This document shows positions 33,236-47,516 of a stretch of DNA of 59,619 nucleotides, in pieces. A program made the position numbers and the translations under genes. The stretch covers positions 1 through 59,619 of the IMG/VR virus record IMGVR_UViG_3300046170_000404, one strand, 5' to 3'. The notes under the pieces are model-generated. The model ran no database searches. It was given only the letters and a program-made list of their open reading frames with translations, and was not told where the DNA came from. The stretch's first letter is position 1, and each line of letters begins with the position of its first letter. This DNA comes from a virus.

Positions 33236-33787
33236 CTAAACCTCCTTTCTAGTTCCCCAAAGTTTTCTTTTATCTCCAAAATGATCTGCATATAAACCAT
33301 TTGCATCAACATAATGAAGAAATGTTTGAGCACACCAATCTCCTTGAAATTCATTTCTCCAATGAGTGAGGTCACAACCTAAATATATTACTCCATCTCC
33401 AGGATTTAAGTCTATTGCTTTGTCTTCAATAAAAATAGGCCACTCTGTTCCATCACTTCCAATATTTACTGTAACACTTATTTCACATGACGGTCTATCT
33501 TTGTGTGCCGACAGTTCAGAAAATTTTGTATACATTCTCCAAAAAGAATAAGTTGGTAATAGTGAAAGTCCTGTAAGTTCCTCCATTTTAGATTTTTTGT
33601 TACATAGTAAAGATTCCATAATAGGATCTCCGTAAATAGAAGTATCCCAATTTGTTGATTGTTCCATGTCAAATTGACTATCGTTAATTCTATGTTTTAT
33701 TTGACAGTAAGTATTTAAAATATTTTTTTCTTCTACTGTTAGAATATTTTTAACTTTTTTATATTTAAATTGTTTTATGTTGTCCAT
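33236..33787 (-). CDS. 2OG-Fe(II) oxygenase
   Basis: The iron motif is SAHKDRPSCEISVTVNIG (His-x-Asp, first two ligands), with the second His in IYLGCDLTHWRNEF and an Arg in the final strand region. The strand pattern fits the double-stranded beta-helix. Marine phages carry such hydroxylases next to structural genes; substrate unknown. It overlaps the next oxygenase gene by 13 bp, so two oxygenases are co-translated in tandem. Confidence 0.75.
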   Translation of the reverse strand: MDNIKQFKYKKVKNILTVEEKNILNTYCQIKHRINDSQFDMEQSTNWDTSIYGDPIMESLLCNKKSKMEELTGLSLLPTYSFWRMYTKFSELSAHKDRPSCEISVTVNIGSDGTEWPIFIEDKAIDLNPGDGVIYLGCDLTHWRNEFQGDWCAQTFLHYVDANGLYADHFGDKRKLWGTRKEV

Positions 33788-34335
33788 GCTGCAATACTAT
33801 ACCTTTCTCCGTTTTTGACAGGGGCTACTGAGTGTGGAAACAAAAAACAAGATGGCCAAATTATAATTCTATTTTTCTTTTTTTGAATTTTAAATTCATT
33901 AGTACCATTAGGGTTTCTAAAACAAAGTTCTCCCCCTTCATAATCTTCATTTAAAAAAATTATACAACTTAAAGTTCTCGACATTTGTGGTGCATGATCA
34001 TAATGCCATACATAATAATCCGATGATTGGTACTTTAAAAATTGAATTGATTCAATACCACTTGTATAAATTGTTTTAATTTTGTTTTCTTCTGTATATC
34101 TAGACACAGTATTTGCAACAATATCTTTAATTATATAAAACCAATGTACTTCAGTCATTGATTCACTAGAAGGATGCACACCACAAATATTTACTTTTCT
34201 AACTTTTTTGTTAATTTCACCCTGTCCAACTTCTCCTTCTTTCCAAGTAAAATTTTTACATACTTTAAAAAGTTTGTTTAAAACTTTTTCTGGAAAAACA
34301 TCATCATAAACATTAATGTAATTTTTTAAGTCCAT
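33775..34335 (-). CDS. 2OG-Fe(II) oxygenase, prolyl-4-hydroxylase-like
   Basis: YYVWHYDHAPQMSRTLSCII provides the His-x-Asp iron site, IFLNEDYEGGELCFRNP the typical L-N-x-x-Y-x-G-G-E-L strand, and IIIWPSCFLFPHSVAPVKNG the second His; ERYSIAAWTT gives the Arg. This is the closest match to prolyl 4-hydroxylases in the window. In phages these may hydroxylate proteins or nucleic acid. Substrate unknown. Overlaps the next oxygenase and DUF6065-like genes. Confidence 0.85.
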   Translation of the reverse strand: MDLKNYINVYDDVFPEKVLNKLFKVCKNFTWKEGEVGQGEINKKVRKVNICGVHPSSESMTEVHWFYIIKDIVANTVSRYTEENKIKTIYTSGIESIQFLKYQSSDYYVWHYDHAPQMSRTLSCIIFLNEDYEGGELCFRNPNGTNEFKIQKKKNRIIIWPSCFLFPHSVAPVKNGERYSIAAWTT

Positions 34336-35069
34336 TTTTTTTTATTCCAAAATTTATTTTTATACTTATGTAATATTCCTAGACTATAAAATATTTTGTT
34401 TTTAATTATATCATCTGTCGATGCACTTTTTATTTTCATATTCCAAGAATCTCTTTTAAAAGGTATTATTTGAACATAAGGTGTTCCCTTTTTTATTGTT
34501 GTTTCTAAATATGGATATTTATCTCCATTAATCACAATTGGAAAATTAATTTCATTTTTAAAACTATCTGTATCGACTATTCCAGAAATTATAGAAAACC
34601 TATCATCAGTATTATTTAAGGGTGGCACAAATAAACATGAGTAACCAGGAGGTGTTTTTATTATCCATGGATTTAATATTTTTAAAAAAGGAAGTTTTTT
34701 ATTTTTTTCTACATATGGAGATTCTCCTAATTGATGCGGAGGGTGCATATTTGGAGTGTTTCCAGTTAAATTAATTGATTTTTTATATAGTAAAGAATCA
34801 TCTGCTTCGTTAGGATGCCAAATAATATCCCCACTTCCGTCTTCTTTTTTAGAGTTATGTATAAAAGAATAATCTTGAGGTACCTTTAAAAGATAACCAG
34901 TTGTTAAGGTATCTAGAAAAGGCATACAACCTTTTACGGTTTGGCTTCCTACATTATGGTTTAATTTTTTAAACCAATCTGGAATATTTAATTTTATTGG
35001 AGTGGGATAATCTTCTTTAAATTTAACGTAATCTTCATGTGCAATAAATTCTATATTTTTAGAAAACAT
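34326..35069 (-). CDS. DUF6065-like hypothetical protein
   Basis: The 247-aa protein has IKLNIPDWFKKLNHNVGSQT, TVKGCMPFLDTLTTGYLLKV and NMHPPHQLGESPYVEKNK; it resembles a family often found beside 2OG oxygenase genes in marine phages (DUF6065). Beta-rich and cupin-like, with several conserved His. It overlaps the oxygenase gene by 10 bp, so the three genes may act on the same substrate. Function not established. Confidence 0.6.
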   Translation of the reverse strand: MFSKNIEFIAHEDYVKFKEDYPTPIKLNIPDWFKKLNHNVGSQTVKGCMPFLDTLTTGYLLKVPQDYSFIHNSKKEDGSGDIIWHPNEADDSLLYKKSINLTGNTPNMHPPHQLGESPYVEKNKKLPFLKILNPWIIKTPPGYSCLFVPPLNNTDDRFSIISGIVDTDSFKNEINFPIVINGDKYPYLETTIKKGTPYVQIIPFKRDSWNMKIKSASTDDIIKNKIFYSLGILHKYKNKFWNKKKWT

Positions 35070-35105
35070 AAAACCAAACTATATTTTTTTTATAAAAAGT
35101 AAACC

Positions 35106-35591
35106 TTAAATAAGTTCAAGTACACTCAATGATTCTTGACCTTGTTGAGTAGCATATTTTTCTAAACTTATATTCAAGGGAGCTAAAGATGATGTATCTA
35201 ATGCTTTCATCCAACTTACATATGAATTTATAATAGATATAATAGGTTTACCAGAATTATATTTAGTATAATTTTCTAGTTGTTCTATTTGTTCTTTAAT
35301 ATAATCTTTTAATTCTGCTTCTGTTTTAAATTTAGGTTCAGTAGTATTTCCCGCAGGTGCTGCAGGTTCTGTAGAAACTATATTTTCAAAAGTTATTGTT
35401 GAACCATCATGACTTATAACTTCTAATTCTTGGTTTTTTATGCCTTCAAATTGTTCCGTTGTTATGTCAAAAATAGTATAGCTAGAACTATCAAAATTTT
35501 TATTTGCATTTAAAAAATCTTCATCTCTCGCTATTCGGTACAATGAATGCATTTCATTTTCACTATTTAAATTAAAAATTGCTTTAGCCAT
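35106..35591 (-). CDS. Structural-region hypothetical protein (161 aa)
   Basis: Soluble, with an alpha-helical start (MAKAIFNLNSENEMHSLYRI) and a central beta patch (EVISHDGSTITFENI) and a helical end (DYIKEQIEQLENYTKYN). It directly follows the fibre gene and is 1 bp from it. It may be a fibre chaperone or tail assembly protein (that position is common for such), but there is no domain evidence. Confidence 0.6.
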   Translation of the reverse strand: MAKAIFNLNSENEMHSLYRIARDEDFLNANKNFDSSSYTIFDITTEQFEGIKNQELEVISHDGSTITFENIVSTEPAAPAGNTTEPKFKTEAELKDYIKEQIEQLENYTKYNSGKPIISIINSYVSWMKALDTSSLAPLNISLEKYATQQGQESLSVLELI

Positions 35592-35592
35592 A

Positions 35593-36867
35593 TTATTGTC
35601 CTGTATTTTCTAAAATTAATATTAGCCCTTGTTTTCCAGATGTTCCTGCTGTGGCTTGATTAGGGCTTATTGAAATACCACCCGGACCTCCTTCGCCATA
35701 TGATACAACAGAAGTACCAGTTGCTCCAGATGATCCATAAATTCTTGAAGGTAAAGTAGTCAAAGTAGCGGGGGCTGTTACAGAAGTAGCACCATTGTTA
35801 CCAGGGTTTCCTACAGGTTGACCATGCCAACTTCCACCTTGTCCACCATTTCCTGCAGTGAAACTAAAAACATTAGTTAAAGAAGTTGTACCACCAGCAC
35901 TACCAGCATTTCCTCTTGGGTTTTGTGGATTTCCTCTTGAACCTCCAGCTCCAACACTAAAAGGTTGTGAAAAAGGTTGCGTTATTGGTTTGCTTACAAA
36001 TCCAAAAGCACCGTTTCCTCCGTTTCCTCCTCCAGGCCCTGCACCTGGATTATAAGCTCCTCCGCCTCCGCCTCCGCCTGCGTAAGCATATATTCCAGCA
36101 AAGTTTGCGTTTGCACTAGCTGTATAAGTTCCAGAAGAAGGTCCTGCATTAACTTGTTTGAATATCATGTTAGCACCACCACCTGCTCCATCTGCAGCAG
36201 CAGTAAGTCTTCCTTGAGCATCAACTGTAATAGCCGCTGACGAGTAAGATCCTGCAGTTACTGCAGTGTTTGCTAATTTGTCAGCAGTCACAGCATCGTC
36301 TGCGATTTTTGCAGTGCTTACTGCTGAGTCTGCGATTTTAGCAGTAGTTACATTTGCATCAGTAATTTTAGCAGTAGTTATAGCATCGTCTGCAATTTGT
36401 GCGGTTGCAATTGTACCTGAAATATTTGCAGCAGCAATAGTTCCACCTAGAGTGTCTAATGAAATTTCATTTAAGTTTGTTCCATCAGAATATGCTGCGT
36501 AAATTTTTGCTTGGTCTAAAGTAAATCCAGTTCCTGATGCAGTTTTAATTGTAAGGTTAGTTGGATTAGTTAAACCTGTTGCATCAAATATATAAAATTT
36601 TTCTATTGAATCTGGGATAGTACAAATTGTACTAGCAGCAATAGTTGCTGATGCAAATTTAATTACCATGTTTCTTGCGTTAGATAATGCACCATCTGAC
36701 ATTACAAGTGCTAAAGTACCACCACTTGAAAGTGTTACTTGTTCGAAACCAGCGATAGCTTGTTGAATTACATTTAAGTTTGTGTTTGTTTTATCTCCCC
36801 ATGTACCAGCGTTTTCGCCAGTCACCATTAGTTCGAGTTTTAAATCTGTAGAATAACTAGATGTCAT
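35593..36867 (-). CDS. Tail fibre-like protein with glycine-rich end
   Basis: The N-terminus (MTSSYSTDLKLELMVTGEN) is a common start of tail-fibre-like proteins in marine podoviruses. The middle has the periodic pattern TAQIADDAITTAKITDANVT repeated, typical of a triple-helical or beta-stranded fibre shaft. The last part is rich in G and N (YAGGGGGGGAYNPGAGPGGG), forming a receptor-binding or spacer tip. It likely binds the host surface. Confidence 0.75.
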   Translation of the reverse strand: MTSSYSTDLKLELMVTGENAGTWGDKTNTNLNVIQQAIAGFEQVTLSSGGTLALVMSDGALSNARNMVIKFASATIAASTICTIPDSIEKFYIFDATGLTNPTNLTIKTASGTGFTLDQAKIYAAYSDGTNLNEISLDTLGGTIAAANISGTIATAQIADDAITTAKITDANVTTAKIADSAVSTAKIADDAVTADKLANTAVTAGSYSSAAITVDAQGRLTAAADGAGGGANMIFKQVNAGPSSGTYTASANANFAGIYAYAGGGGGGGAYNPGAGPGGGNGGNGAFGFVSKPITQPFSQPFSVGAGGSRGNPQNPRGNAGSAGGTTSLTNVFSFTAGNGGQGGSWHGQPVGNPGNNGATSVTAPATLTTLPSRIYGSSGATGTSVVSYGEGGPGGISISPNQATAGTSGKQGLILILENTGQ

Positions 36868-36903
36868 AAATTTTATCTCCTAAATAATCTAATAATACCT
36901 TAT

Positions 36904-37884
36904 TTAAGCTGCTCTATCAACCTCTGTCCAATTATTATTAACGCCTGGGTTTACTTCAGCCCATGCAGTAACAATAGGACTTCCTACTGAAGCTGCCAAT
37001 TGTATGCCTGTAACATCTATATTTGCAGTACCTTCAGCTACCACAGAGCCTATTGAGGTCGCTAATTGTAACCCGCCTACACCTATAATTTGACCTGGTA
37101 TATCTGCGTGTTGGCCAAGAGTCAATGTCAACTGTTGTCCCGTAACCGATTCATTAGTTGATTGAATTAGGGTTATAGAACCCAAAGTCATTGTAGCTTG
37201 GATACCTGTAACATCTACTGGAGTTTTAAGACCTCCTGTAGTATTTCCTTGAGACATTGTAGCTTGAACACCAGTGACACTAACATTCGCATCTGCAGAT
37301 ACTGTTGAGGCTGAGGTTAAAGCATCAAGCTGATCTTCCGAAGCTAGTACAAATATATCTTGATCAATCTGAATCGAAAAAGATGGATGAGAGAAAGAAG
37401 CAGCTAGTTGTTGTCCTGTAACAGATGCAGTAACATCTGTAAATGCTGTCTCTTCACCAATTGAAGATGTAAGTGAAATACCTGTAACTTGAATTGAATA
37501 ATTATCGCCCCAAGCAAAACTTCCCCAAGCATCTCTACCCCAACCTTCTCCAGTTAGTGTTGTGTCATCAATGGTTACTGCTCCTTGATTAAATTGTATC
37601 TGTGAACCAGATACACCAACCTCTTGTCCAATAGGTGTTGAAACACTTCCAACACCAATAGATTCTAGACTACCGGTGACTGAAACTAAAGCAGAGGTTC
37701 CCCCTACAGCAGATCCTTGAGTTGATGTTAATTGTAATCCAGTGAGAGTTACTTGATGATCAATTACGTGGGTTTCGTTCCCAATAGTTGATGTTAATGA
37801 TAGGCCACTTAGGTTAACGGATGTATCGCTTAGATCTCCCCAAGCTTCTGCACCCCATGTCTTCTTACCCCATCCAGTGGCCAT
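36904..37884 (-). CDS. Repeat-rich virion protein
   Basis: The 326-residue protein has about a dozen loose repeats of (V)TG(I/Q)Q(L/A)(T)x(T/S)xG (such as VTGIQATMTLGSITL) separated by short linkers, plus the motif GWGxxxWGxxxWG at residues 4-17 and again in the middle. Beta repeats like these form fibrous virion parts. It lies between two structural genes. Role inferred from composition and position. Confidence 0.65.
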   Translation of the reverse strand: MATGWGKKTWGAEAWGDLSDTSVNLSGLSLTSTIGNETHVIDHQVTLTGLQLTSTQGSAVGGTSALVSVTGSLESIGVGSVSTPIGQEVGVSGSQIQFNQGAVTIDDTTLTGEGWGRDAWGSFAWGDNYSIQVTGISLTSSIGEETAFTDVTASVTGQQLAASFSHPSFSIQIDQDIFVLASEDQLDALTSASTVSADANVSVTGVQATMSQGNTTGGLKTPVDVTGIQATMTLGSITLIQSTNESVTGQQLTLTLGQHADIPGQIIGVGGLQLATSIGSVVAEGTANIDVTGIQLAASVGSPIVTAWAEVNPGVNNNWTEVDRAA

Positions 37885-37901
37885 ATCATCTTATTCCTTT
37901 A

Positions 37902-38345
37902 TTAAGCTATTCTTAAAATAGCAGCAGAAGTAGTAAATGCAGGAAACTGAATTGTAAATGTTCCAGCTGTTGCAGTTTTATCACTTCCAAAATCTAACAC
38001 AGCAACTGCATCAGTAGTGTTTGTACCACCGTTTGTTTGAGTGTTATAGATTAATGCACCTCTTGCAGTAAGAGTTACGTTTTGAAAACTAAGATCAGCA
38101 AAATCAGTAATAGCTACTGAAGATGAAACTTTAACACCTTGATTTACTAAGGCAGCTCCACCAGCTGTGTAGTTTGATGAAGTCACTTCATTTGCAGTAA
38201 TATAGTTTGTTGTTGATTTTCCTAAAGTCGCTGAACTAGTATACATCGCTAATTTATATGTGTCTGTTGATGCATCAAAATCGTGACTTCCTTGAAGTAA
38301 TTCTTTTTTAAAAGAATCACAGATTGCGTTTGTTGTTATTGCCAT
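37902..38345 (-). CDS. Tail protein (147 aa)
   Basis: Starts MAITTNAICDSFKKELLQGS and contains TYKLAMYTSSATLGKST and AAILRIA at the end, a strongly beta-rich pattern seen in small tail proteins of this type of phage. Tightly placed between connector-region genes. Function not established beyond virion. Confidence 0.65.
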   Translation of the reverse strand: MAITTNAICDSFKKELLQGSHDFDASTDTYKLAMYTSSATLGKSTTNYITANEVTSSNYTAGGAALVNQGVKVSSSVAITDFADLSFQNVTLTARGALIYNTQTNGGTNTTDAVAVLDFGSDKTATAGTFTIQFPAFTTSAAILRIA

Positions 38346-38363
38346 AATTATTCTCCTTTAAAA

Positions 38364-39023
38364 TTATTGGTTTGGAGAGGGAGAGGGCACTACCATTCTT
38401 GGTACACCATCATCAAACTCCGCTCGTCTTCTTCTGCCCATTTGTTGTAGAGCAAAATTCTGTACTTCTTCAGTATACTTTGTATTGTAGATGTTGCCAA
38501 GACTGTCGGGTCCTTTTAAAAACCTAAAAGCTTCTGCTAGAACACCATGTAATAACATTGATTCTTGATAAGTAGATAAAAAAGTATTGTTTGTAGAAGT
38601 AAAATTAGGTGGATCAATGATATAATTTATTTGTACTTGTAAAGCTGAACTTGGAACTGGAGCTACCAAAAGGTTAAAATCATCCCAATTAGCCCAATAT
38701 TTAGGAGTGCCGGTTGCACCTTCGTTATTGTATTCTGATATAAAACTTGTGTCTCTTTTTTCTAAAAAAGTTCTGTTTCCACTTCCATCTATTGATTGAA
38801 CTGATCTTATAATTGTTAAATCTGAAGGTAATGAAACATATCTATTGTCAGCAGTAAAATTAGATGTAGAGTATTTTCTTAAATCATCATAGTCAACTTT
38901 ACCTGCAACATCTAATTCAACACTTCTTATAAAATCTTGAATAATTGCATCCGTTAAAACATTAGCGTCTACTTCTGTGTAGTTTCTAACTTGTGTAAGA
39001 AAAGATGAGTGTGTAATAGCCAT
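38364..39023 (-). CDS. Head-tail connector-type protein (219 aa)
   Basis: MAITHSSFLTQVRNYTEVDAN, then DFIRSVELDVAGKVDYDDL and a C-terminal helix (NFALQQMGRRRRAEF) are the usual features of a connector or adaptor protein of short-tailed phages. It overlaps the next gene by 1 bp, in the gp4-like cluster. Name is tentative. Confidence 0.65.
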   Translation of the reverse strand: MAITHSSFLTQVRNYTEVDANVLTDAIIQDFIRSVELDVAGKVDYDDLRKYSTSNFTADNRYVSLPSDLTIIRSVQSIDGSGNRTFLEKRDTSFISEYNNEGATGTPKYWANWDDFNLLVAPVPSSALQVQINYIIDPPNFTSTNNTFLSTYQESMLLHGVLAEAFRFLKGPDSLGNIYNTKYTEEVQNFALQQMGRRRRAEFDDGVPRMVVPSPSPNQ

Positions 39024-39460
39024 TATGATATACTAACTCCTACTGATCCAATTGTTGAAATTAATTCTCTACTTCTATTTTGAAGTGATGGGTCTTCTGG
39101 AACCATACTGTGAATTGTAGTTGTAATACCGTTTGATGTAACATTAAAATCTTGTGTTCTAAAAGCAAAGTCTCCAGGTAATGAAAGATTTGCTACTCCA
39201 ACATGAATACCACCAGAATCTGAAATAGTTTGATCGTTTGAAAATTCTTGAGTTGGTTGTTGTACCGTCATAGTTCTTGGGTTTCTCAATGCTACTGCAT
39301 CTGCTTTATGATAAGGTGGATCAAGTTGTGGATGTTTAGGTTCAAACTCAGATATGTGTACTAGAGAACCATTCCATTCTTTAACCATCTCCTTATAAGG
39401 AAATGCTTGTCCAGATCTATCAGAAATAGCTTTTGATCTTTTACCAGTTGCGAAAGACAT
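39023..39460 (-). CDS. Structural protein (145 aa)
   Basis: Begins MSFATGKRSKAISDRSGQAF and has YKEMVKEWNGSLVHISEFEP, known from marine phage structural genes located between connector genes; beta-rich C-terminus. It is one gene of the connector cluster. No function assigned. Confidence 0.65.
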   Translation of the reverse strand: MSFATGKRSKAISDRSGQAFPYKEMVKEWNGSLVHISEFEPKHPQLDPPYHKADAVALRNPRTMTVQQPTQEFSNDQTISDSGGIHVGVANLSLPGDFAFRTQDFNVTSNGITTTIHSMVPEDPSLQNRSRELISTIGSVGVSIS

Positions 39461-40155
39461 TATACTCCATCTCCAAAATAAGTTTGTGGAGAGATATAAA
39501 CTGAAGTTCTTGAACCGTCTTCGTTTAATGCTCTAAGTAATTCATCCTCATATAATTGTTTTAATAATTGTATTCTATCTGGTGCTCTTTTTTGTGATAA
39601 ATAATATGCAAGGCCAGAACACATACAAGGTAAAAATCTATAAGCGACATCAGCTGTTTTTGTAAAACCACCTGCATCTTCGATTCTGTTTATTGTGTAA
39701 AATTTTAATGTTGTATAAGTAGTTGCATCTGGAGCTAAATACAAACTTATAGTAGGTGTCGTTTGTCTGTCGACAAAATACTGCGAAGGTTGTCCTGTTT
39801 GTAATTTATTTGGAATTGCAGCATAAGCAGATCTATCAATTTTTGTTAATGATATATCGTTTGTTGATGAAGTATTTCCTGCTGCTGCAGTTGTAGAAAT
39901 ATATGCTTCAAGAACATCGTTAACATCTGTTGCAACAGTATAAGTTGCAGTTCCTGCAGTTAAAACTTGTTCATTAAGTTGAACTTTCCAAAGGTGTATA
40001 CCTCTGTTGCCCCATTCTGAAAATAAAAGATTTAAACTTCTTCTTGCGCTACGTAAGTCATTCCCACTATTAGTCCGCATACCACATCGTTCGTATGCTT
40101 CTTCAATAATGTCATCGATCTGAAGATCGAATGATGTAGTTCCTGACGTAGCCAT
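39460..40155 (-). CDS. gp4-like head completion / tail accessory protein
   Basis: MATSGTTSFDLQIDDIIEEA with YERCGMRTNSGNDLRSARRS is the classic start of P22 gp4-like or tubular adaptor proteins of short-tailed marine phages; a C-terminal helix (LKQLYEDELLRALNEDGSRT) follows. The 231-aa length fits. It sits next to the connector proteins and helps join head and tail. Confidence 0.75.
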   Translation of the reverse strand: MATSGTTSFDLQIDDIIEEAYERCGMRTNSGNDLRSARRSLNLLFSEWGNRGIHLWKVQLNEQVLTAGTATYTVATDVNDVLEAYISTTAAAGNTSSTNDISLTKIDRSAYAAIPNKLQTGQPSQYFVDRQTTPTISLYLAPDATTYTTLKFYTINRIEDAGGFTKTADVAYRFLPCMCSGLAYYLSQKRAPDRIQLLKQLYEDELLRALNEDGSRTSVYISPQTYFGDGV

Positions 40156-41179: not shown

Positions 41180-41703
41180 TAAAATACTCCTTTAAATTTA
41201 GTTCCTTTAATCGCTGCTCCTGCTCCACGTACCTCGCCACCACACATCATTTTATTTGTAGAAGGTAGTTTACTAAATTTTGATGATTTTTTCTTTTTAT
41301 TTGCAGCAGAGCCACTACTGTCTGTAGTTGTATCTATTTTTAAACCTCTAGGTAAATCTTCTAAATTATTGTCGTACCTATCTCTTGCCTTCTTTTTTTT
41401 AGCACCCATGTCTTTTCCACCACCATATTTAAGCTTCAGAGTGCTTAAAGTTTCTGCTTGTGCAGCATGTGTTTTAGATGCTTTTTTTAAACCCTTTATT
41501 ACTTCATTTACTTTTACTTTAGTTTCTCCACCAATTTTTTTACCTGCAGGTTTAGGACCTTTAAAATCTTTTCTTTTTACACCTGATGGATCTTTAATTT
41601 TTCCTGCACAAATCTTTGATGCATAAGCATTTGCATATGCGCTTGGATATACTTTGAATTTTCTTTTAGCGGCTGATTTGCCTCTTGCACATAATTTAGT
41701 CAT
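41179..41703 (-). CDS. Basic hypothetical protein (174 aa)
   Basis: Lysine-rich with MTKLCARGKSAAKRKFKVYP and SAYANAYASKICAGKIKDPS, a module common in small proteins of marine phages, ending AAIKGTKFKGVF as in the preceding gene. This module often appears in several copies in phage genomes. Function unknown; probably a virion or DNA-associated protein. Confidence 0.65.
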   Translation of the reverse strand: MTKLCARGKSAAKRKFKVYPSAYANAYASKICAGKIKDPSGVKRKDFKGPKPAGKKIGGETKVKVNEVIKGLKKASKTHAAQAETLSTLKLKYGGGKDMGAKKKKARDRYDNNLEDLPRGLKIDTTTDSSGSAANKKKKSSKFSKLPSTNKMMCGGEVRGAGAAIKGTKFKGVF

Positions 41704-41726
41704 GCAAGAATTATATCATTTTTTAA

Positions 41727-41867
41727 TTAAACAGTAAACGTCTTGGCTAAAGGGTTTTTCTTCTTTTTAATAGCTATTTTGACTCTTTTCTTTTTTTCTT
41801 TCTCGTCTCTCGCCCCTCTTAATTTTCCATCAATTTGTGCTGGTATTTGTCCTCTAGTTATAGCCAT
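41727..41867 (-). CDS. Small basic protein (46 aa)
   Basis: Starts MAITRGQIPAQIDGKLRGAR and is charged with a K run and the tail NPLAKTFTV. It lies between the basic protein gene and an oxygenase gene; the start overlaps the oxygenase end by 10 bp. Too short for standard ORF cutoffs but well packed. Confidence 0.6.
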   Translation of the reverse strand: MAITRGQIPAQIDGKLRGARDEKEKKKRVKIAIKKKKNPLAKTFTV

Positions 41868-42385
41868 GTTTTTATCTCCTTAATTTTATTTAAAAATATT
41901 ACAATAGTTAATCTTTCATTTTTATCTAAGCTAGTAGCTCCATGATAAACATTACCATCATAACATGCAAGAGTATTAAATGAATTTGAAACTTGTATTG
42001 ATGGGTTTTTATCTTTATCGTAAATTGTAGTACCCGTATAAAAATTATTTGTATCTTGATTTAGATAAATTATACCCGCTAAGTCAGTAAAATCTTTATG
42101 AATTCTTGTATTCTTCTTATCATGCAGTAACCAATCTTCGTATGTAATTTTATGAAACTGTATGGTTGTACTTTCAATAGATACTTTGTAACCATTAAAA
42201 TATAATTTTACTATTTTCTCTACTATGTCATCGTGAAGTTTTTGGTTAATTTCAAATAGATTGTCTGATCTTAATCCAGGCCAGTTGTCTTGGTTTGATG
42301 GTTTTTTCCATGTAATTTGTTTCGAATATTTTATAACTTCTTCTGGGTTTTCAAAAAAATTATTTTTAATTATTGTTGGTTTCAT
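41858..42385 (-). CDS. 2OG-Fe(II) oxygenase (DUF6445-like)
   Basis: The iron-binding residues are TRIHKDFTDLAGIIYLN (His-x-Asp) and YDGNVYHGATSLDKNERLTI (second His and Arg). The double-stranded beta-helix strands are visible. It belongs to the cluster with a sulfotransferase and another oxygenase. Substrate unknown; acting on a small molecule or glycan is plausible. Confidence 0.75.
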   Translation of the reverse strand: MKPTIIKNNFFENPEEVIKYSKQITWKKPSNQDNWPGLRSDNLFEINQKLHDDIVEKIVKLYFNGYKVSIESTTIQFHKITYEDWLLHDKKNTRIHKDFTDLAGIIYLNQDTNNFYTGTTIYDKDKNPSIQVSNSFNTLACYDGNVYHGATSLDKNERLTIVIFLNKIKEIKTWL

Positions 42386-43145
42386 TTAATTTTTTTAAAG
42401 ATATTGGGTTATTATATTTAATAAATTGAATCATATCATAATTTAAGTAGTCTTCCACAACGTAATTTAATTTTTCAATTTTATCTGTTCTTATTTTATG
42501 TAAGTTATCAATATAGTTATCTTTGTAGTAAATTTGATCTATTGAAAATTGTTTTAATTTTTTTGGTTTTTTTATATCGAAGCCAAGAAAAAGGCTTAGG
42601 TTTTGAAGAAAATAATCTGTATTATTTATTAAATCATCGTAATAAAATATTTTATAATTTTCATTTTCTTTTATTAAATTATTAATACTCCATATATTTT
42701 TACCGATTACCTCGTCTTGTCTTAGTAGTCTCAATAAATAATTGTTGATGTTATTTTTTGTATAATTTTTGTTATCTATTTGTATTTTTGCAAATGAAGC
42801 TAAACATTCCTCTAACGGTCTTAAAAGTATTAAAAATTTTGGATTATTAATAATTTTTTTTAGTATATATAAATTATCTGGTGTTCCCCATGGTCCTCTA
42901 TCTATTATTAAGTCACAGTTCCAATCCTTATAATAATTCTGTAAACTTAATTTAATTAAGTTATCTAAAGAGCTATGTTTAGGAAAGTTTTTAAAAATAT
43001 CATCATTTTTTAATTCATGTAGTTTATATACAATATCCAAAGTAATTGAATTTGGACTAAGTTTTATTTTTTTATTTTCATTTATTATTGACCCAAGTAA
43101 TGTATTACCTGCTCTAGGTAGAGAACATAAAAAATTAATATTCAT
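42366..43145 (-). CDS. Sulfotransferase
   Basis: The PAPS-binding 5'-loop is CSLPRAGNTLLGSIIN (residues 6-21) and the 3'-phosphate site is PKFLILLRPLEECLASFAKI. These two motifs define sulfotransferases. The middle IIDRGPWGTPDNLYIL follows the fold. Transfers a sulfo group from PAPS to a hydroxyl or amine acceptor. It lies between two oxygenases and overlaps one by 20 bp, so the three may modify the same compound. No sulfate-activation genes are in the window, so PAPS would come from the host. Confidence 0.8.
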   Translation of the reverse strand: MNINFLCSLPRAGNTLLGSIINENKKIKLSPNSITLDIVYKLHELKNDDIFKNFPKHSSLDNLIKLSLQNYYKDWNCDLIIDRGPWGTPDNLYILKKIINNPKFLILLRPLEECLASFAKIQIDNKNYTKNNINNYLLRLLRQDEVIGKNIWSINNLIKENENYKIFYYDDLINNTDYFLQNLSLFLGFDIKKPKKLKQFSIDQIYYKDNYIDNLHKIRTDKIEKLNYVVEDYLNYDMIQFIKYNNPISLKKLNETNNN

Positions 43146-43147
43146 AA

Positions 43148-43642
43148 TTATTTTATATAATTAAAATTTATTACAATTCTATTAGATGTATTTGTATGTG
43201 TAACCGCTTGGTGTTTTATAGAACCATCAAACTCAATATAAGAATTTTCAATACTGTAATTTTTAGTTCCATCTTCAAATAAAGTGTACCCATCATTTGT
43301 ATTTAGATAATATAGTCCAGTAAAAATTTTATAATTTTTTGCATTTTGTATATCTATATGTAAACCAGTTTCTTTATTTTTTTGAGTTGGAAAGGTAAGA
43401 TTAGCTTTTATTCTAATTAGTGTAAAAGGATTTATATTTGTAATTAAATTTTTAAGTAAATCAAAATAGTTTGAATTAATATAATTTTTTTGATTATCAA
43501 AAAAGTTATGGGTCATCATTACATTGCCATCATTTTTATACAGTACACCCTTGTGTAAATACCAAGGAAAATAATTTGAAGTAAGATTTTCTTTTAAATT
43601 GTTAAAATCTTCAACTTTTAAGAAATTTTTAAAAACTTTCAC
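43148..43642 (-). CDS. 2OG-Fe(II) oxygenase
   Basis: TGLHIDIQNAKNYKIFTGLY carries His-x-Asp, YLNTNDGYTLFEDG the typical strand, and SIKHQAVTHTNTSNRIVINF the second His and the Arg. All ligands are visible, so activity is likely. It is directly upstream (1-2 bp) of the sulfotransferase gene. Confidence 0.8.
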   Translation of the reverse strand: MKVFKNFLKVEDFNNLKENLTSNYFPWYLHKGVLYKNDGNVMMTHNFFDNQKNYINSNYFDLLKNLITNINPFTLIRIKANLTFPTQKNKETGLHIDIQNAKNYKIFTGLYYLNTNDGYTLFEDGTKNYSIENSYIEFDGSIKHQAVTHTNTSNRIVINFNYIK

Positions 43643-43651
43643 AAAAGATAA

Positions 43652-44128
43652 TTATATTAAATCTTTTGCTTTGCCAATAATTGGTTTGTATTTTGTTTTA
43701 CCTTCAAATTTAAAAACATGCATAAACTGTCTTCTAGGTTGATAAGGTATCCAACTGGCGTGAATCCATCCAGAGTTAGGTTCTCCTGGTGTATAAAACT
43801 CAAGCAACAATTGATCTGTCTCACAGTTCATATGTACCCAATCAGCTACCTCAGCGTTGTCGACCCCTATACATTCGAAATCAACGGCCTCAGCTTTTGC
43901 ATGCTGCGATTTTTCTGAGCTACCGATGGCACGGCAAAGCTCAATAGTACGGAACCCTGATGTGACTTTTACTCTACCAAAATGATCTCTGACCGGTTGC
44001 AATACATTTTCACATAATGCTTTTAATTTTTCTATTTGATCTGCATTAGGATTATTATCAATGCCCAAACGTATAGCTGTATCTGATTTAATTAACTCTT
44101 GAAGAGTAAAATTTTGTGAAAGGTTCAT
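43652..44128 (-). CDS. M15-family peptidase endolysin
   Basis: The protein has the zinc-peptidase motif SSEKSQHAKAEAVDFE (S-x-H-x-x-x-x-A-x-D) and GWIHASW (second His), with the N-terminal LSQNFTLQELIKSDTA binding-like segment and TSGFRTIELCRAIGSS. M15 D,D/L,D-peptidases cut peptidoglycan cross-links and are common phage endolysins. 158 aa is the normal length. It is near the holin-like genes at 44.1-44.9 kb and 51.9-52.3 kb. Confidence 0.9.
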   Translation of the reverse strand: MNLSQNFTLQELIKSDTAIRLGIDNNPNADQIEKLKALCENVLQPVRDHFGRVKVTSGFRTIELCRAIGSSEKSQHAKAEAVDFECIGVDNAEVADWVHMNCETDQLLLEFYTPGEPNSGWIHASWIPYQPRRQFMHVFKFEGKTKYKPIIGKAKDLI

Positions 44129-44133
44129 AATTA

Positions 44134-44346
44134 TTATTCTAATATTAACTTCTTAATTGAAAAAGATCCATCTATATTTTTTTCGAGCTCTGCTATTTGC
44201 TTCAGGCATTGATACTTTACGTGCGATTTAGAATCACGTCTAGCTGTACGTGCTCCTTTAAGACAATCAGACATTGAAGTCTGGATACGTGCCTCCTTTA
44301 TCTCTCCATGTACAATCATAAGTAATGCTACCACTAACTCTGTCAT
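44134..44346 (-). CDS. Small hydrophobic-start protein (70 aa)
   Basis: The N-terminus MTELVVALLMIVHGEIKEAR is hydrophobic enough to be a signal or anchor, and the rest has Cys residues (SDCLKGARTARRDSK, YQCLKQIAELEKN). In the lysis region, so possibly an outer spanin or regulator; not proven. Confidence 0.6.
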   Translation of the reverse strand: MTELVVALLMIVHGEIKEARIQTSMSDCLKGARTARRDSKSHVKYQCLKQIAELEKNIDGSFSIKKLILE

Positions 44347-44735
44347 TAGTATGCCTTACCATTTTCTCTTACTTTATCTTTCAGTCCTTCAATATCTTCT
44401 AATGCTTTATCTAATTGTTCTCTTAAAAATTCTATGTTGACTTTGTTAGTCATGTTCATCTCTTGAGTTTCTTCCATCTTCTCAACGGTTTTGTACAAAT
44501 CCTCAATTAAAAAATGTTGCTCCTGGTCCGTAGGCACTTGTTCAGATTTTTTTAATAAATCATTTTCAAATAACTCACGTGATGTCTCTAACGATACTAA
44601 CCTCGCAGTCAGCTCCGTATAAGCGAACACGCCCATTGCAACGAGCACGATCAGGCTAGCAACCGTCTTCATCGGCATCTGTACTCTTGCCTCTTCTCCG
44701 ATATCTAAAGGTTTATTGGACACTTGGTCCCCCAC
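44346..44735 (-). CDS. One-helix membrane protein with coiled coil (129 aa)
   Basis: A membrane helix (TVASLIVLVAMGVFAYTEL) is followed by a long charged coiled coil (NVEFLREQLDKALEDIEG-type). This is the layout of an inner spanin (one helix plus periplasmic coiled coil) and it sits by an endolysin gene, so a spanin-like role is plausible. The start overlaps the 30-aa gene upstream. Confidence 0.6.
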   Translation of the reverse strand: MGDQVSNKPLDIGEEARVQMPMKTVASLIVLVAMGVFAYTELTARLVSLETSRELFENDLLKKSEQVPTDQEQHFLIEDLYKTVEKMEETQEMNMTNKVNIEFLREQLDKALEDIEGLKDKVRENGKAY

Positions 44736-44805
44736 AAAGAGCTAATATGACTAGCATTAATATCAATAAACCTGTCGCATAATAGTTCATTCTTTGATAC
44801 CCCAT
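44713..44805 (-). CDS. Tiny membrane protein (30 aa)
   Basis: MGYQRMNYYATGLLILMLVI forms a single hydrophobic helix, ending GGPSVQ. It lies between the coiled-coil membrane gene and the 31-aa gene and overlaps the former by 23 bp. Evidence is position and hydrophobicity only. Confidence 0.4.
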   Translation of the reverse strand: MGYQRMNYYATGLLILMLVILALCGGPSVQ

Positions 44806-44807
44806 AA

Positions 44808-44903
44808 TTATTTCTTTTTATTTTTCCTGTTAAATATATTATCTATCTTATTAAATAACTTGTCTAGTAGCCCAAAAAAATTATATATAAACCTATCAAT
44901 CAT
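44808..44903 (-). CDS. Tiny basic helix protein (31 aa)
   Basis: MIDRFIYNFFGLLDKLFNKI with a KKK tail makes an amphipathic helix. Its ATG lies in the stop of the 44896-45675 gene (8-bp overlap), a coupling seen repeatedly in this genome. Possibly a lysis or membrane-associated peptide; weak evidence. Confidence 0.4.
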   Translation of the reverse strand: MIDRFIYNFFGLLDKLFNKIDNIFNRKNKKK

Positions 44904-45675
44904 TTTTATTACCATCGTTTTCAAATGATAAATCGTGTGCATATTCCTTATAATTTAAATAAGTTCTTTTGTTTTTTTCTTCCTCTTCATACATTTTTTT
45001 CTCTTCTTCAAAACCCTCTCTAAGTAACTCAGATGTTGTTTTTTCTTTCATTTCGTAAAACATTTTGTCACTATCTTCTGTAACCATATTTGAATCTTCT
45101 GCATCCCAGTATGTAGTTTGAACTTTGTAGTCAGGCCAACTGTCATCAGTAGTGTAACTATTAACATGCCACAAAATACGATTATTAGGCTGAGCTGCAT
45201 AATTACCGTTAGTAAGCTCCAATATATGTGCACACTTATGTTCCTGAGGAATTTCAGAATGCTCTGTGTCCAAAATATTAGTTTCTGGATGAGCCCAATC
45301 AATAGTAAATAAATATTTTCCATGGTAAAATTTTTTGTCTAAACCTAAAAATTTACCTTTTAAACCAGCCAACCAATCAAAACAAGTAACACTAGGGTAG
45401 TAACTAAAACAGTTCCACAGTTCCAACTCGTGCGTCTGCATATTCGGCACAGTGGCTCTATCATGTGATTTTTGGAAAAACGCTGAGATAGGCAAGCGCC
45501 AAAAGCATGCACCATTTGGTAACATGATGTTAAATAAGATTGCACGTCCCGATATGGATGTGATACTGAAGACCACACACTCTTCACTTTCTCCTTGATG
45601 TTTTTTAAGATCATATAAATACTCCTTTTTTACTTTACAATATATAGGTGGTATATTAGCATTTAGGTAAGACAT
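44896..45675 (-). CDS. Conserved phage hypothetical protein (259 aa)
   Basis: Has beta-rich FSITSISGRAILFNIMLPNG, TDDSWPDYKVQTTYWDAED and a charged C-terminal tail (EEEKKMYEEEEKNKRTY). I have seen this type in marine phages near structural genes with no function assigned. It is in the structural operon between virion proteins. Likely a virion or morphogenesis protein. Confidence 0.6.
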   Translation of the reverse strand: MSYLNANIPPIYCKVKKEYLYDLKKHQGESEECVVFSITSISGRAILFNIMLPNGACFWRLPISAFFQKSHDRATVPNMQTHELELWNCFSYYPSVTCFDWLAGLKGKFLGLDKKFYHGKYLFTIDWAHPETNILDTEHSEIPQEHKCAHILELTNGNYAAQPNNRILWHVNSYTTDDSWPDYKVQTTYWDAEDSNMVTEDSDKMFYEMKEKTTSELLREGFEEEKKMYEEEEKNKRTYLNYKEYAHDLSFENDGNKND

Positions 45676-45678
45676 AGT

Positions 45679-45987
45679 CTAACACTTCCATCTACGTCTA
45701 GCCTGTCTTAATCTTGAATTAGGGTCTTTTGCAGCTTTAGGAAACTTTTTCATTTGTCCTGCGCTTCTTGCACAATATGATTTTCTCCGAGCTGCTCTTT
45801 TCTTACCTGGTTTATCTTCTGTGACTGCAGTTTTTAATTTACTTCCAGGATTTTTTCTTCTGTAAGCCATGACTCCAGCTTGAGTCATTCCCGCTCCACT
45901 TTTTGTAGAACGGAAATTCTTTTTATTTCTAGGTGGCATGCCACCTTTTTTTAATTCGATTATATCAGCGTAATAATCTAAATCCAT
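45679..45987 (-). CDS. DUF6321-like basic protein (102 aa)
   Basis: GMTQAGVMAYRRKNPGSKLK, KRAARRKSYCARSAGQMKKF and DPNSRLRQARRRWKC at the C-terminus match a family common in marine phages, including cyanophages. Strongly basic, so DNA-binding is likely. Clear family membership, unknown role; lies in the capsid-region operon. Confidence 0.7.
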   Translation of the reverse strand: MDLDYYADIIELKKGGMPPRNKKNFRSTKSGAGMTQAGVMAYRRKNPGSKLKTAVTEDKPGKKRAARRKSYCARSAGQMKKFPKAAKDPNSRLRQARRRWKC

Positions 45988-45988
45988 T

Positions 45989-46291
45989 TTAAGTAAATGA
46001 AATAGTTACACCTGCAGTTCCAGCAATAGTCGCATGAATACCATCTGCGAAAAAAATACCATTACCTGGTAAGTACATATCTAAACCTTCAGTTCCAAAA
46101 AGATAAGTTGCAATAACATCTCCTGTAGCGCCACCAGATCTAAATATAATTGAACCACTAGCATTTCCTTTTGCTTGAATAGAAGTTAATCTTGTTCTAT
46201 TTGTTTTACCTGTTCCACCTACTGCTACCATTTGAGCTGTACCAGTTGCGTGTGCAACCGACTGATCCGATGAAAAACTTGATCCACCCAT
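45989..46291 (-). CDS. Small structural protein (100 aa)
   Basis: Beta-rich with MGGSSFSSDQSVAHATGTAQ and GNGIFFADGIHATIAG. In the capsid-side operon, 48 bp from the next structural gene with a hairpin terminator between. Probably a virion decoration or tail protein; unproven. Confidence 0.6.
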   Translation of the reverse strand: MGGSSFSSDQSVAHATGTAQMVAVGGTGKTNRTRLTSIQAKGNASGSIIFRSGGATGDVIATYLFGTEGLDMYLPGNGIFFADGIHATIAGTAGVTISFT

Positions 46292-46309
46292 AATTTTCTC
46301 CTTTAATTT

Positions 46310-46329
46310 GTGGCTCCCGAAGGAGCCAC
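46310..46329 (-). terminator. Hairpin between structural genes
   Basis: GTGGCTCC (46310-46317) and GGAGCCAC (46322-46329) form a perfect 8-bp stem; on the minus-strand transcript the loop is TTCG, a very stable tetraloop. It separates 46340-46861 from 45989-46291. There is no strong T run, so it may stop or stabilise the transcript. Confidence 0.65.
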
Positions 46330-46339
46330 TAGTTTATTA

Positions 46340-46861
46340 TTACGTGTCGCTAAACGGTGTAACGATAGTTCCTGATCCAAGCAACATTGAGCTATGAACC
46401 AAATAGTTAGCTGCTTCAATAGCAGTCACTGAAACTATAGATCCAATGATACCACCTTGAGTAGTTCCATTCATAGTAAGAACATCATTAGATGCTCCTG
46501 GAAAGAAAGCTTTTTTAGCTCCATCATCTACAGCAACCATAGCTGCACCTGTGAACTTATCAGTTCCATCAGTTACGATTTGAACATCAGTTGCAGTTGT
46601 GTCTACGTAAAAAGTAAAAGTTGCACCAATATTATTTGCATTATTTAAATCACTTCCTGGTCCTGCCACTGCTGAATCAGCTGTTGCAACAATTGAAGGT
46701 AAAGTGAAAATACCATCTGCATCTTGTGTTAAAAGGATTCTTCCTGCGTGAGCATTTACAGTTAACGATGTGTTAGCTGTTAGTGCTACAGTTGATCCTG
46801 GTCCAGTACCTATAAAGCCATTTTTAGAAATGACTGGTCCTGAAAAAGTTGTGTTTGCCAT
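46340..46861 (-). CDS. Structural protein (173 aa)
   Basis: Starts MANTTFSGPVISKNGFIGTG and has long beta-rich repeats (ATADSAVAGPGSDLNNANNI, VVDDGAKKAFFPGASNDVL-type). Proteins of this build are abundant virion proteins in similar phages. Just upstream of the hairpin terminator. Confidence 0.65.
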   Translation of the reverse strand: MANTTFSGPVISKNGFIGTGPGSTVALTANTSLTVNAHAGRILLTQDADGIFTLPSIVATADSAVAGPGSDLNNANNIGATFTFYVDTTATDVQIVTDGTDKFTGAAMVAVDDGAKKAFFPGASNDVLTMNGTTQGGIIGSIVSVTAIEAANYLVHSSMLLGSGTIVTPFSDT

Positions 46862-46994
46862 AATAGTTTTCTCCTGTATAGCGGTTAAATTTTGTAGTCT
46901 CTATACCGTCTGCCTAGCCAGTCTACAAAATTATATTTTCTAGGTCTTTTTATTATATTATACTTATTAGTTTAGGTAAATACTACTTGAATTA

Positions 46995-47516
46995 TTAAGC
47001 TTTTAATTCATTAAAATTAAGACTCATTCCAAATTTTGAAATAGTATCTGTATTTTTTTTACATCCATGACTTAAAAATGAACTAAAAATACAAAAAGCA
47101 CCTTTTTGTGGTTTACATTTTTGTTCAATATCTTTAAATTCTAAATTTTGTTCACAATCATTTAAATATACTACTGCCGACCATAATGCTTCATGGTGAT
47201 CATGAAATATTGTTTTTTCTCTAGGTCTTAGCTCAAATCCCCAAGCATCTCGAAGACTATAGCTTATTTGTTTATAGTTTTCGTCAACATAATCCATAAG
47301 GGGATGAGCAATTTCTTTTATAAATTTTTCATCATTTACAAAAAAATTATAAGGAGTCATTAGTCCTAATATATTAGTGACATAATTGTTATTATCTTTT
47401 GAAGAGCAACTTTCCTTAATTTTTTCAATAAAATATTGACAGTCTATGTCTAAAATGCCTTTAATAAAAAAATATTCTTTTTCTACCTTACGATTAATTT
47501 CTTTATTAATAATCAT
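46995..47516 (-). CDS. 2OG-Fe(II) oxygenase
   Basis: KTIFHDHHEALWSAVVYLND gives the His-x-Asp pair, FSSFLSHGCKKN the second His, and KFGMSLNFNE the last strand. The start was taken at MIINKEINRKVEKEYF because the earlier Met run looks like an extension. It lies alone between the capsid gene terminator and the other structural genes. Substrate unknown. Confidence 0.7.
   Translation of the reverse strand: MIINKEINRKVEKEYFFIKGILDIDCQYFIEKIKESCSSKDNNNYVTNILGLMTPYNFFVNDEKFIKEIAHPLMDYVDENYKQISYSLRDAWGFELRPREKTIFHDHHEALWSAVVYLNDCEQNLEFKDIEQKCKPQKGAFCIFSSFLSHGCKKNTDTISKFGMSLNFNELKA

What the first reader, a model, noticed from the sequence alone, without database searches (positions are those of the whole stretch)
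33236..47516. Six 2OG-Fe(II) oxygenases with sulfotransferase, two glycosyltransferases, carbamoyltransferase and halogenase in one phage
Oxygenases are predicted at 13454-14089, 33236-33787, 33775-34335, 41858-42385, 43148-43642 and 46995-47516, each with visible His-x-Asp, second His and usually Arg. They are mixed into the tail and head operon, two overlapping each other and two flanking a sulfotransferase. Upstream (26.7-30 kb) are a GT-A and a GT-B glycosyltransferase and a NodU-type carbamoyltransferase; at 6.7 kb is a halogenase. The families are known individually in marine phages. The density, and the oxygenase-sulfotransferase-oxygenase order, suggest a late-expressed modification system acting on virion proteins, a surface glycan or a small molecule.
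Basis: partly seen in the sequence, partly recalled or inferred. Interest (0 to 1): 0.8.

Follow-up and report, generated by a model that had tools for sequence, protein, structure and literature searches.

The report
Marine phage tail-fibre modification cassette
A relative of common ocean phages carries a set of protein-hydroxylase-like enzymes, partnered by sulfate- and carbamoyl-transferring enzymes, near the gene for the tip it uses to grip bacteria, which suggests that the phage chemically decorates its own gripping tip rather than running host metabolism.

Summary
Six oxygenase genes are present, but two lack the reported His-x-Asp, one (13.5 kb) sits in the replication block, the carbamoyltransferase is two genes and the halogenase is a remnant. 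The window is a relative of pelagiphage HTVC023P. Gene 33236 belongs to a family interpreted in print as 'ferrochelatase'; its AlphaFold model (pLDDT 96) is a prolyl-hydroxylase-type 2OG oxygenase. In relatives, all 50 loci holding both the tail-fibre gene and the next conserved tail gene carry at least two oxygenases between them. The fibre ends in a Gly-rich domain predicted to fold like the solved Pam3 fibre. Tip and enzymes are hypervariable and vary together. Loci chosen only by sulfotransferase homology have an oxygenase within 3 kb in 75 of 79 (capsid control 0 of 32), often with a Gly-rich gene upstream. Similar arrays occur in T4-like cyanophages. Best reading: an exchangeable fibre-modification cassette (inferred; no substrate shown). 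Against it: some phages carry the 33236-type gene alone, away from fibres; Pro-Gly enrichment is not general; linkage alone could cause much of the co-variation.

The parts
33236..33787 (-). Oxygenase A (PHROG 2954, labelled ferrochelatase): predicted prolyl-hydroxylase-type 2OG/Fe(II) oxygenase; H95-x-D97, H142
   Evidence: AlphaFold pLDDT 95.9; Foldseek and VIA rows are 2OG-oxygenase folds, top 4iw3, PHD2, SnoN; H95, D97, H142 in 148 of 150 each
33775..34335 (-). Oxygenase B (PF13640, PHROG 61); H111-x-D113, H168, R178
   Evidence: best solved relative by profile is prolyl 3-hydroxylase 1, E 2.4e-10
34326..35069 (-). Gene X, unknown (PHROG 7084; weak DUF6065 resemblance), part of the fibre-tip/X/B/A block
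35106..35591 (-). Gene Y, 161 aa, no family match, next to the fibre gene
35593..36867 (-). Tail fibre: conserved N-terminal part (about residues 1-227) and hypervariable Gly-rich tip predicted to be a poly-Gly-II-type domain; proposed substrate
30832..32982 (-). Conserved tail-region gene T716 that bounds the block on its other side
41858..42385 (-). Oxygenase D; H96-x-D98, H148, R158
42366..43145 (-). PAPS sulfotransferase S; closest full-length solved relatives are protein-tyrosine sulfotransferases
43148..43642 (-). Oxygenase E (PHROG 274, labelled DNA endonuclease V); H95-x-D97, H144, R155
46995..47531 (-). Oxygenase F (PF13759) with His-x-His...His, beside the capsid gene
13454..14089 (-). 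Oxygenase R (PF13759, PHROG 81) with His-x-His...His, in the replication block; link to the cassette not shown
29074..29997 (-). Carbamoyltransferase N-domain as a separate ORF
   Evidence: PF02543 3.7e-15; separate ORFs in 21 of 22 relatives fetched with the C-domain
28566..29129 (-). Carbamoyltransferase C-domain as a separate ORF
   Evidence: PF16861 1.3e-49
27615..28544 (-). GT-B glycosyltransferase, recurrent at this place in relatives
   Evidence: PF00534 1.1e-16; synteny
26753..27628 (-). Possible GT-A glycosyltransferase, recurrent at this place in relatives
   Evidence: weak Anp1 match, PHROG 1574 unknown function; synteny
6688..7819 (+). Remnant of a flavin-dependent halogenase (two ORFs, about 90 central residues missing)
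   Evidence: PF04820 1-113 and 203-413 of 458

Best explanation
The genes form an exchangeable tail-fibre modification cassette. Shown: family A has a prolyl-hydroxylase-type 2OG oxygenase fold (predicted) and does not match ferrochelatase models; oxygenases lie between the fibre gene and the next conserved tail gene in all 50 relatives where both could be seen; the fibre ends in a hypervariable Gly-rich adhesin-like domain; tip, X, B and A co-vary; the sulfotransferase and, in relatives, single-ORF halogenases and carbamoyltransferases sit beside oxygenases. Inferred: during virion assembly the oxygenases hydroxylate side chains of the fibre tip (possibly also other tail proteins), and some of those groups, or Tyr/Trp/Ser side chains, are then sulfated, chlorinated, carbamoylated or glycosylated. 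This would change receptor binding or protect the tip, and would be why enzymes and tip are exchanged together. R (13.5 kb) and F (47 kb) may act elsewhere.
For: 50 of 50 loci holding both fibre and T716 have at least two oxygenases between them, 48 of 50 a family-A gene, 42 of 50 X. Family A: pLDDT 95.9, hits 4iw3, PHD2, SnoN, Z 14.6-16.1 in the 50 rows shown. B: best solved relative prolyl 3-hydroxylase 1. S: TPST-like, PAPS motifs conserved. Fibre tip: pLDDT 88.4, Pam3 fibre and Bxb1 tail tip Z 16-17, then ALK/LTK Gly-rich domains (Z 9-10) and Obg-type proteins (Z 5-8). In 112 close pairs mean identity is T716 0.90, fibre N-part 0.77, tip 0.42, X 0.54, B 0.41, A 0.53; tip-B partial correlation given T716 and X is 0.32 (0 of 2000 permutations reach it). 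S-chosen loci: oxygenase within 3 kb 75 of 79, within 150 bp 56 of 79; of those with 1.5-kb flanks 54 of 54 within 1.5 kb, capsid control 0 of 32. Of 75 Gly-rich ORFs in those loci, 71 have the nearest cassette gene downstream on the same strand, and only 7 of 75 share the window fibre's N-part. S is present in 16 of 79 loci chosen by family A. Eleven of 12 array-bearing named phages have fibre, fibre-assembly or Gly-rich genes within about 6 kb of the array.
Against: No substrate or activity is shown. Physical linkage alone could make neighbours vary together: the tip-A link vanishes once X is allowed for (0.06, 473 of 2000), and the tip also correlates with the fibre's own N-part (0.42, 4 of 2000). 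The collagen-type X-Pro-Gly target is enriched only in this clade's tips (143 seen, 113 expected), not in other Gly-rich ORFs (333 seen, 381 expected). L114, L141 and L148 have a short fibre without the Gly-rich tip yet carry oxygenases, mostly on the opposite strand. In ACG-2014f, S-P4 and S-ShM2 a single family-A gene sits away from fibres, among replication or other genes, and S-SKS1 shows no fibre near its genes. The window's E-S-D group is about 5 kb from the fibre, and its own capsid gene has an oxygenase beside it, so oxygenases are not confined to the fibre. Oxygenases are frequent in the tail region generally (within 1.5 kb of 7 of 20 GT-A and 8 of 14 w39463 genes). Fold similarity also reaches small-molecule oxygenases (SnoN, EctD).
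Confidence: 0.55

Rival explanations
1. Auxiliary metabolism: the oxygenases, with a ferrochelatase partner, adjust host iron, heme, nitrogen or 2-oxoglutarate metabolism.
For: Published view: partner AMGs (PMC9599517, passages), seasonal enrichment of phrog61 and phrog2954 (PMC11561400, passages), 2OG/NtcA hypothesis (PMC3037559, passages). Host iron-uptake genes rise in HTVC027P infection (PMC12753301, passages). Single A genes lie in replication regions of S-P4 and S-ShM2.
Against: The ferrochelatase partner is itself an oxygenase fold and none of 50 members matches PF00762 at E 1 or better. Locked position beside the fibre, presence in 50 of 50 loci and sequence hypervariability are unlike what one expects of a metabolic enzyme.
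Confidence: 0.15
2. Host-surface modification: the enzymes alter host surface glycans or proteins late in infection, preventing superinfection or loss of progeny to debris.
For: Glycosyltransferases, carbamoyltransferase and sulfotransferase are typical glycan tools (families; use recalled); they lie near receptor-binding genes, so the receptor is a logical target. Co-variation with the tip also fits.
Against: B and A resemble protein hydroxylases most and S is closest to protein-tyrosine sulfotransferases over its full length; both are superfamily-level hints only. No signal or membrane parts were looked for.
Confidence: 0.15
3. Small-molecule or peptide natural-product pathway: halogenase, oxygenases, sulfotransferase and carbamoyltransferase build a compound.
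For: Same enzyme kinds occur in natural-product clusters (recalled); SnoN, EctD and CurM are among the structural or sequence relatives.
Against: No scaffold-making gene was named among the proteins scanned (not every ORF was scanned); the halogenase in the window is broken; enzyme sets vary between relatives.
Confidence: 0.07
4. A recombination hot spot: these are unrelated cargo genes that accumulate in the variable fibre region without acting on the fibre.
For: Marine-phage variable islands are known to hold fibres and Fe(II) oxygenases (PMC3909814, section 11). Physical linkage explains part of the co-variation.
Against: Cargo would be diverse; instead oxygenases are present in 50 of 50 and the same enzyme kinds recur beside fibres in T4-like phages.
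Confidence: 0.08

Closest known systems
Partner AMGs '2OG-Fe(II) oxygenase + ferrochelatase' of HTVC023P-type pelagiphages (Wittmers et al. 2022, PMC9599517)
   Same: Same phage group and same kinds of genes; co-location was reported (passages read).
   Different: The 'ferrochelatase' is here an oxygenase by predicted fold; fibre adjacency, co-variation with the tip, and the sulfotransferase are not in the passages read.
Metaviromic islands of marine phages (PMC3909814)
   Same: Lists Fe(II)-dependent oxygenases and tail fibres among genes of variable islands, both under 'host recognition' (section 11 read).
   Different: The section read gives no modification mechanism and no enzyme-tip co-variation.
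P. putida prolyl 4-hydroxylase (4iw3, 4j25) and PHD2/EGLN; phage 2OG proteins resembling EGLN3 (Phold paper, PMC12774648)
   Same: Family A shares the fold and the HxD...H site; the Phold paper notes EGLN-like phage proteins, PHROG 61 among them (passages).
   Different: About 10-17% identity; substrate unknown; no Arg/Lys at His+10 in A (R144 and Q154 are invariant instead).
Cyanophage Pam3 fibre (7ypx, 7yfw)
   Same: Predicted tip matches with Z 16-17 and 28% identity.
   Different: Whether Pam3 carries such enzymes was not examined.
Protein-tyrosine sulfotransferases TPST1/2
   Same: Full-length profile match, E 1e-6 at best, and PAPS motifs.
   Different: Distant; CurM scores better over a shorter stretch; acceptor unknown.

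Membership tests
2OG/Fe(II) oxygenase superfamily | double-stranded beta-helix of the prolyl-hydroxylase kind (family A) | tested here: met
   predicted model, pLDDT 95.9; the rows shown are 2OG-oxygenase superfamily members (HalB and BelL so placed from recall) or uncharacterised proteins, Z 14.6-16.1
2OG/Fe(II) oxygenase superfamily | His-x-Asp/Glu...His metal site in 33236, 33775, 41858, 43148 | tested here: met
   (A 148 of 150; B H111 and H168 150 of 150, D113 138 of 150; D H96 61, D98 55, H148 59 of 61; E 60-64 of 74)
2OG/Fe(II) oxygenase superfamily | His-x-Asp/Glu...His metal site in 13454 and 46995 | tested here: not met
   conserved His-x-His...His instead; PF13759 membership is met
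2OG/Fe(II) oxygenase superfamily | Arg/Lys about 10 residues after the last His to bind 2OG | tested here: inconclusive
   B R178, D R158, E R155, R R186 present; not in A, and not among the conserved positions of F
2OG/Fe(II) oxygenase superfamily | turnover of 2OG | not testable with these tools
   needs enzyme assay
Ferrochelatase (published and PHROG label of 33236) | match to PF00762 / TIGR00109 | tested here: not met
   0 of 50 members list PF00762 at E 1; 1 of 50 touches TIGR00109 at E 0.056, one of 11 chance-level families
PAPS sulfotransferase | 5'-PSB loop and 3'-PB Arg/Ser | tested here: met
   PRxGNT loop, R109 and S117 invariant in 14 of 14; site roles recalled
PAPS sulfotransferase | Pfam PF13469 cut-off | tested here: not met
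   23.3 bits against 27
NodU/CmcH carbamoyltransferase | N and C domains present | tested here: met
   PF02543 and PF16861
NodU/CmcH carbamoyltransferase | one polypeptide | tested here: not met
   two ORFs, also in 21 of 22 relatives fetched with the C-domain; one-ORF forms of about 500 aa exist in other loci
Flavin-dependent tryptophan halogenase | full-length PF04820 domain | tested here: not met
   about positions 113-203 of 458 missing, frame change
Poly-Gly-II adhesin-like fibre tip | Gly-rich domain matching solved Gly-rich fibre domains | tested here: met
   (predicted model)
Collagen-type prolyl hydroxylation system | X-Pro-Gly enrichment in the substrate | tested here: inconclusive
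   enriched in this clade (143 against 113 expected, highest shuffle 136), not in other Gly-rich ORFs (333 against 381)

The most novel reading that the evidence does not exclude
Abundant ocean phages build receptor-binding fibre tips with non-standard chemistry: hydroxylated, and in various lineages sulfated, halogenated, carbamoylated or glycosylated. The enzymes are swapped together with the tip as one host-recognition cassette, and they include a three-His branch (PF13759) of the 2OG fold.
Probability: 0.45. Interest if true: 0.88.

Novelty: new variant of a known kind. Interest (0 to 1): 0.66.

Why it matters
[quoted passage not shown] If they modify the fibre, an auxiliary-metabolic-gene interpretation in use changes, sequence-only prediction of host range misses a chemical layer, and phages become a source of protein hydroxylases, sulfotransferases and halogenases with a candidate substrate next door. 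The correction of the ferrochelatase label stands whether or not the fibre is the substrate.

Tried and rejected
Ferrochelatase for 33236: rejected by sequence models and predicted fold. 'DNA endonuclease V' for 43148 and 'minor coat protein' for 41858 (PHROG labels): rejected because iterative profiles join them to oxygenases and the metal ligands are conserved. Frameshift or sequencing error for the carbamoyltransferase: rejected, because the two-ORF form recurs and in L254 and L255 an oxygenase ORF lies between the two parts; the query was the C-domain ORF, which may favour split forms. Collagen-like X-Pro-Gly target: tested, not general. PDB sequence search with the family-A profile found only chance hits (carbonic anhydrase, E 0.6).

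The tool's notes say that absence from a VIA list excludes nothing: gp38-type phage tips and ferrochelatases were not in the rows shown, which I do not count as a test. First capsid control used 30 loci picked by hand and a looser rule (1 of 30 with an oxygenase); one search repeats it on the 32 of 80 capsid loci with 1.5-kb flanks (0 of 32). The window itself would count against that control, as F lies beside its capsid gene. Halogenase ORFs lie within 1.5 kb of an oxygenase or sulfotransferase in 21 of 23, but most of these loci had been chosen for an oxygenase or sulfotransferase, so the closeness is partly built in and I give it no weight as a test. Named phages: 15 records with family A were read, chosen by hand for genus spread out of 156 and 152 matching records; they are not a random sample. 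The sulfotransferase itself is rare in named phages: 6 of 50,697 records match at E 1e-3. 'Late expression' could not be checked: the passages and the section read of the transcriptome paper give no time class for the oxygenase. The answered paper searches listed no paper on fibre modification by phage oxygenases that I recognised from titles and abstract openings; I read only named passages or sections of nine papers, and preprints and most subscription journals are not held.

Full report
What the window is. It is a 59.6-kb virus record. By DNA its nearest named relatives are Pelagibacter phages HTVC023P and HTVC027P, and HTVC023P has a similar gene order with annotated oxygenases next to tail genes. 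Nearly all large ORFs from 20 kb to 59 kb lie on the minus strand.

Checking the six oxygenases. All six ORFs exist. Four are supported by Pfam or nearly so. 43148-43642 (E) is tied in by PHROG 274 and by iterative profiles, which also join B, D, F and R. 33236-33787 (A) matches no Pfam family; PHROG 2954 calls it ferrochelatase. None of 50 aligned members lists the Pfam ferrochelatase family at E 1, and one of 50 touches TIGR00109 at E 0.056, one of 11 chance-level families. The AlphaFold model of A (50-sequence alignment) has pLDDT 95.9 and pTM 0.91. Foldseek ranks P. putida prolyl 4-hydroxylase and human PHD2 first (E 1e-7 to 4e-7), and in the second aligner's 50 rows (Z 14.6-16.1) all named proteins belong to the 2OG-oxygenase superfamily, beside a few uncharacterised ones. 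H95, D97 and H142 are each kept in 148 of 150 homologues (identical sequences removed). A is therefore predicted to be a 2OG-oxygenase fold with its metal site. In print the same label is used for a partner gene of the oxygenases (PMC9599517 and PMC11561400, passages).

R (13454) and F (46995) do not have His-x-Asp. Their conserved pattern is His-x-His...His. R keeps an Arg 11 residues after the last His in 142 of 150. A three-His site in this fold is unusual as far as I recall; activity is untested. R also sits in the replication block, so its part in the cassette is unproven.

The fibre neighbourhood. I fetched 80 relatives by the 716-residue tail gene. The order fibre - Y - X - B - A - small gene - T716 - ... 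- GT-B - GT-A recurs. In 50 of the 80 both fibre and T716 are held; 50 of 50 have at least two oxygenases between them, 48 have A and 42 have X; 27 have two, 20 three and 3 four oxygenases. Between T716 and GT-B relatives carry different extras: the two-part carbamoyltransferase as in the window, or oxygenases. In three loci (L114, L141, L148) the fibre ORF is short, without the Gly-rich tip, and the oxygenases lie mostly on the other strand.

The fibre tip. The window fibre has a conserved N-part and a Gly-rich tip. The tip model (36 sequences) has pLDDT 88.4 and pTM 0.86. It matches the solved cyanophage Pam3 fibre and the Bxb1 tail tip (Z 16-17), then the Gly-rich domains of ALK/LTK (Z 9-10) and Obg-type proteins (Z 5-8). 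That these are poly-Gly-II domains is recalled.

Co-variation. 36 of the 80 loci hold all six parts at full length; 34 remain after dereplication, with 112 pairs at T716 identity of 0.85 or more. Their mean identities are T716 0.90, fibre N-part 0.77, tip 0.42, X 0.54, B 0.41 and A 0.53. Tip identity correlates with B, X and A after allowing for T716 (0.56, 0.55, 0.40; 0 of 2000 permutations each), and with the fibre's own N-part (0.42, 4 of 2000). The fibre N-part does not correlate clearly with B, X or A (133, 299 and 318 of 2000). After also allowing for X, which lies between fibre and B, tip-B stays (0.32, 0 of 2000) but tip-A does not (0.06, 473 of 2000). So tip and enzymes behave largely as one exchanged block; linkage explains part of it.

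The sulfotransferase. It misses Pfam's cut-off but keeps the PAPS-site residues in all 14 aligned members, and over its full length it is closest to protein-tyrosine sulfotransferases (CurM scores better over a shorter stretch). Loci chosen only by its profile: 79 counted of 80 returned (L195, fetched earlier by family A, was left out). 56 of 79 have an oxygenase within 150 bp, 73 within 1.5 kb, 75 within 3 kb; dereplicated at 90%: 36, 49 and 49 of 53. With 1.5-kb flanks on both sides, 54 of 54 have one within 1.5 kb. Controls under the same rule: capsid 0 of 32, w24483 0 of 14, w37905 0 of 21, GT-A 7 of 20, w39463 8 of 14, and T716, which bounds the block, 37 of 37. 57 of 79 have a Gly-rich ORF within 6 kb. 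Of 75 Gly-rich ORFs there, 71 have the nearest cassette gene downstream on the same strand, and only 7 resemble the window fibre's N-part. Sixty of the 79 loci carry T716 or t326 homologues, so they are not independent lineages throughout. In the reverse direction, 16 of 79 new loci chosen by family A carry the sulfotransferase. In named phages it is rare: 6 of 50,697 records.

Halogenase and carbamoyltransferase. The window halogenase is a remnant. In L278, whose sulfotransferase is 92% identical to the window's, and in L109 and L280, a single-ORF halogenase of 492 residues lies directly after the sulfotransferase. 21 of 23 halogenase ORFs in my loci lie within 1.5 kb of an oxygenase or sulfotransferase, but most of those loci were chosen for such a gene, so this is description, not a test. 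The carbamoyltransferase is a genuine two-gene enzyme in this group: 21 of 22 fetched relatives show separate N and C ORFs (the other, L264, is cut by the contig end), and in L254 and L255 an oxygenase ORF lies between them. One-ORF forms occur in other loci.

Other phages. In 15 named records with family A read here, chosen by hand, 12 carry three or more detected oxygenase or sulfotransferase genes. Eleven of these 12 have tail-fibre, tail-fibre-assembly or Gly-rich genes within about 6 kb of the array: HTVC023P, EXVC030M, S-CREM1, S-RIM44, syn9, S-PM2, S-SSM5, S-MbCM6, S-T4, S-SCSM1 and S-SM1. S-SKS1 does not. ACG-2014f, S-P4 and S-ShM2 carry a single family-A gene (in ACG-2014f fused to a B-like part) away from fibres. 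A Gly-rich ORF as defined here was found in 8 of 15. syn9, S-RIM44 and S-CREM1 have halogenases, and S-SSM5 a carbamoyltransferase, between fibre genes and the array.

What it most likely does. The simplest account of position, presence in all 50 loci, shared hypervariability with the tip and company with sulfotransferases is modification of the fibre, probably its tip. Steps shown: predicted fold and ligands, synteny, co-variation, association. Steps inferred: that the enzymes act on the fibre, which residues they change, and the effect on binding. The collagen-like Pro-Gly idea was tested and is not general.

Novelty. The genes and their co-location are known: as partner AMGs (PMC9599517, passages), as members of variable islands under 'host recognition' (PMC3909814, section 11), as EGLN-like folds (PMC12774648, passages), and with a sulfotransferase of unclear function among AMGs of OM43 phages (PMC10580990, passages). 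In ten answered searches of the held library I saw no proposal of a fibre-modifying cassette and no correction of the ferrochelatase label. I file it as a new variant of a known kind.

Noticed in passing
window 13454-14089 and 46995-47531: PF13759-type oxygenases have a conserved His-x-His...His pattern in place of His-x-Asp...His; possible three-His metal site.
   Followed up: partly
window 28566-29997: Carbamoyltransferase split into overlapping N- and C-domain genes; the split form recurs in 21 of 22 fetched relatives.
   Followed up: yes
window 44896-45675: Strong match to PHROG 3704 labelled ferredoxin (4.8e-78) but no Pfam match; the label looks doubtful.
   Followed up: no
window 34326-35069: Gene X, kept between fibre and oxygenases in 42 of 50 loci, weakly resembles DUF6065 (E 0.015); fold not predicted.
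   Followed up: no
window 7845-9140: DNA methyltransferase-like gene next to the halogenase remnant (PHROG 1008, 1.3e-32).
   Followed up: no
L168 1575-15317 and L213 1-9055: Contigs with four halogenase ORFs each near oxygenases.
   Followed up: no
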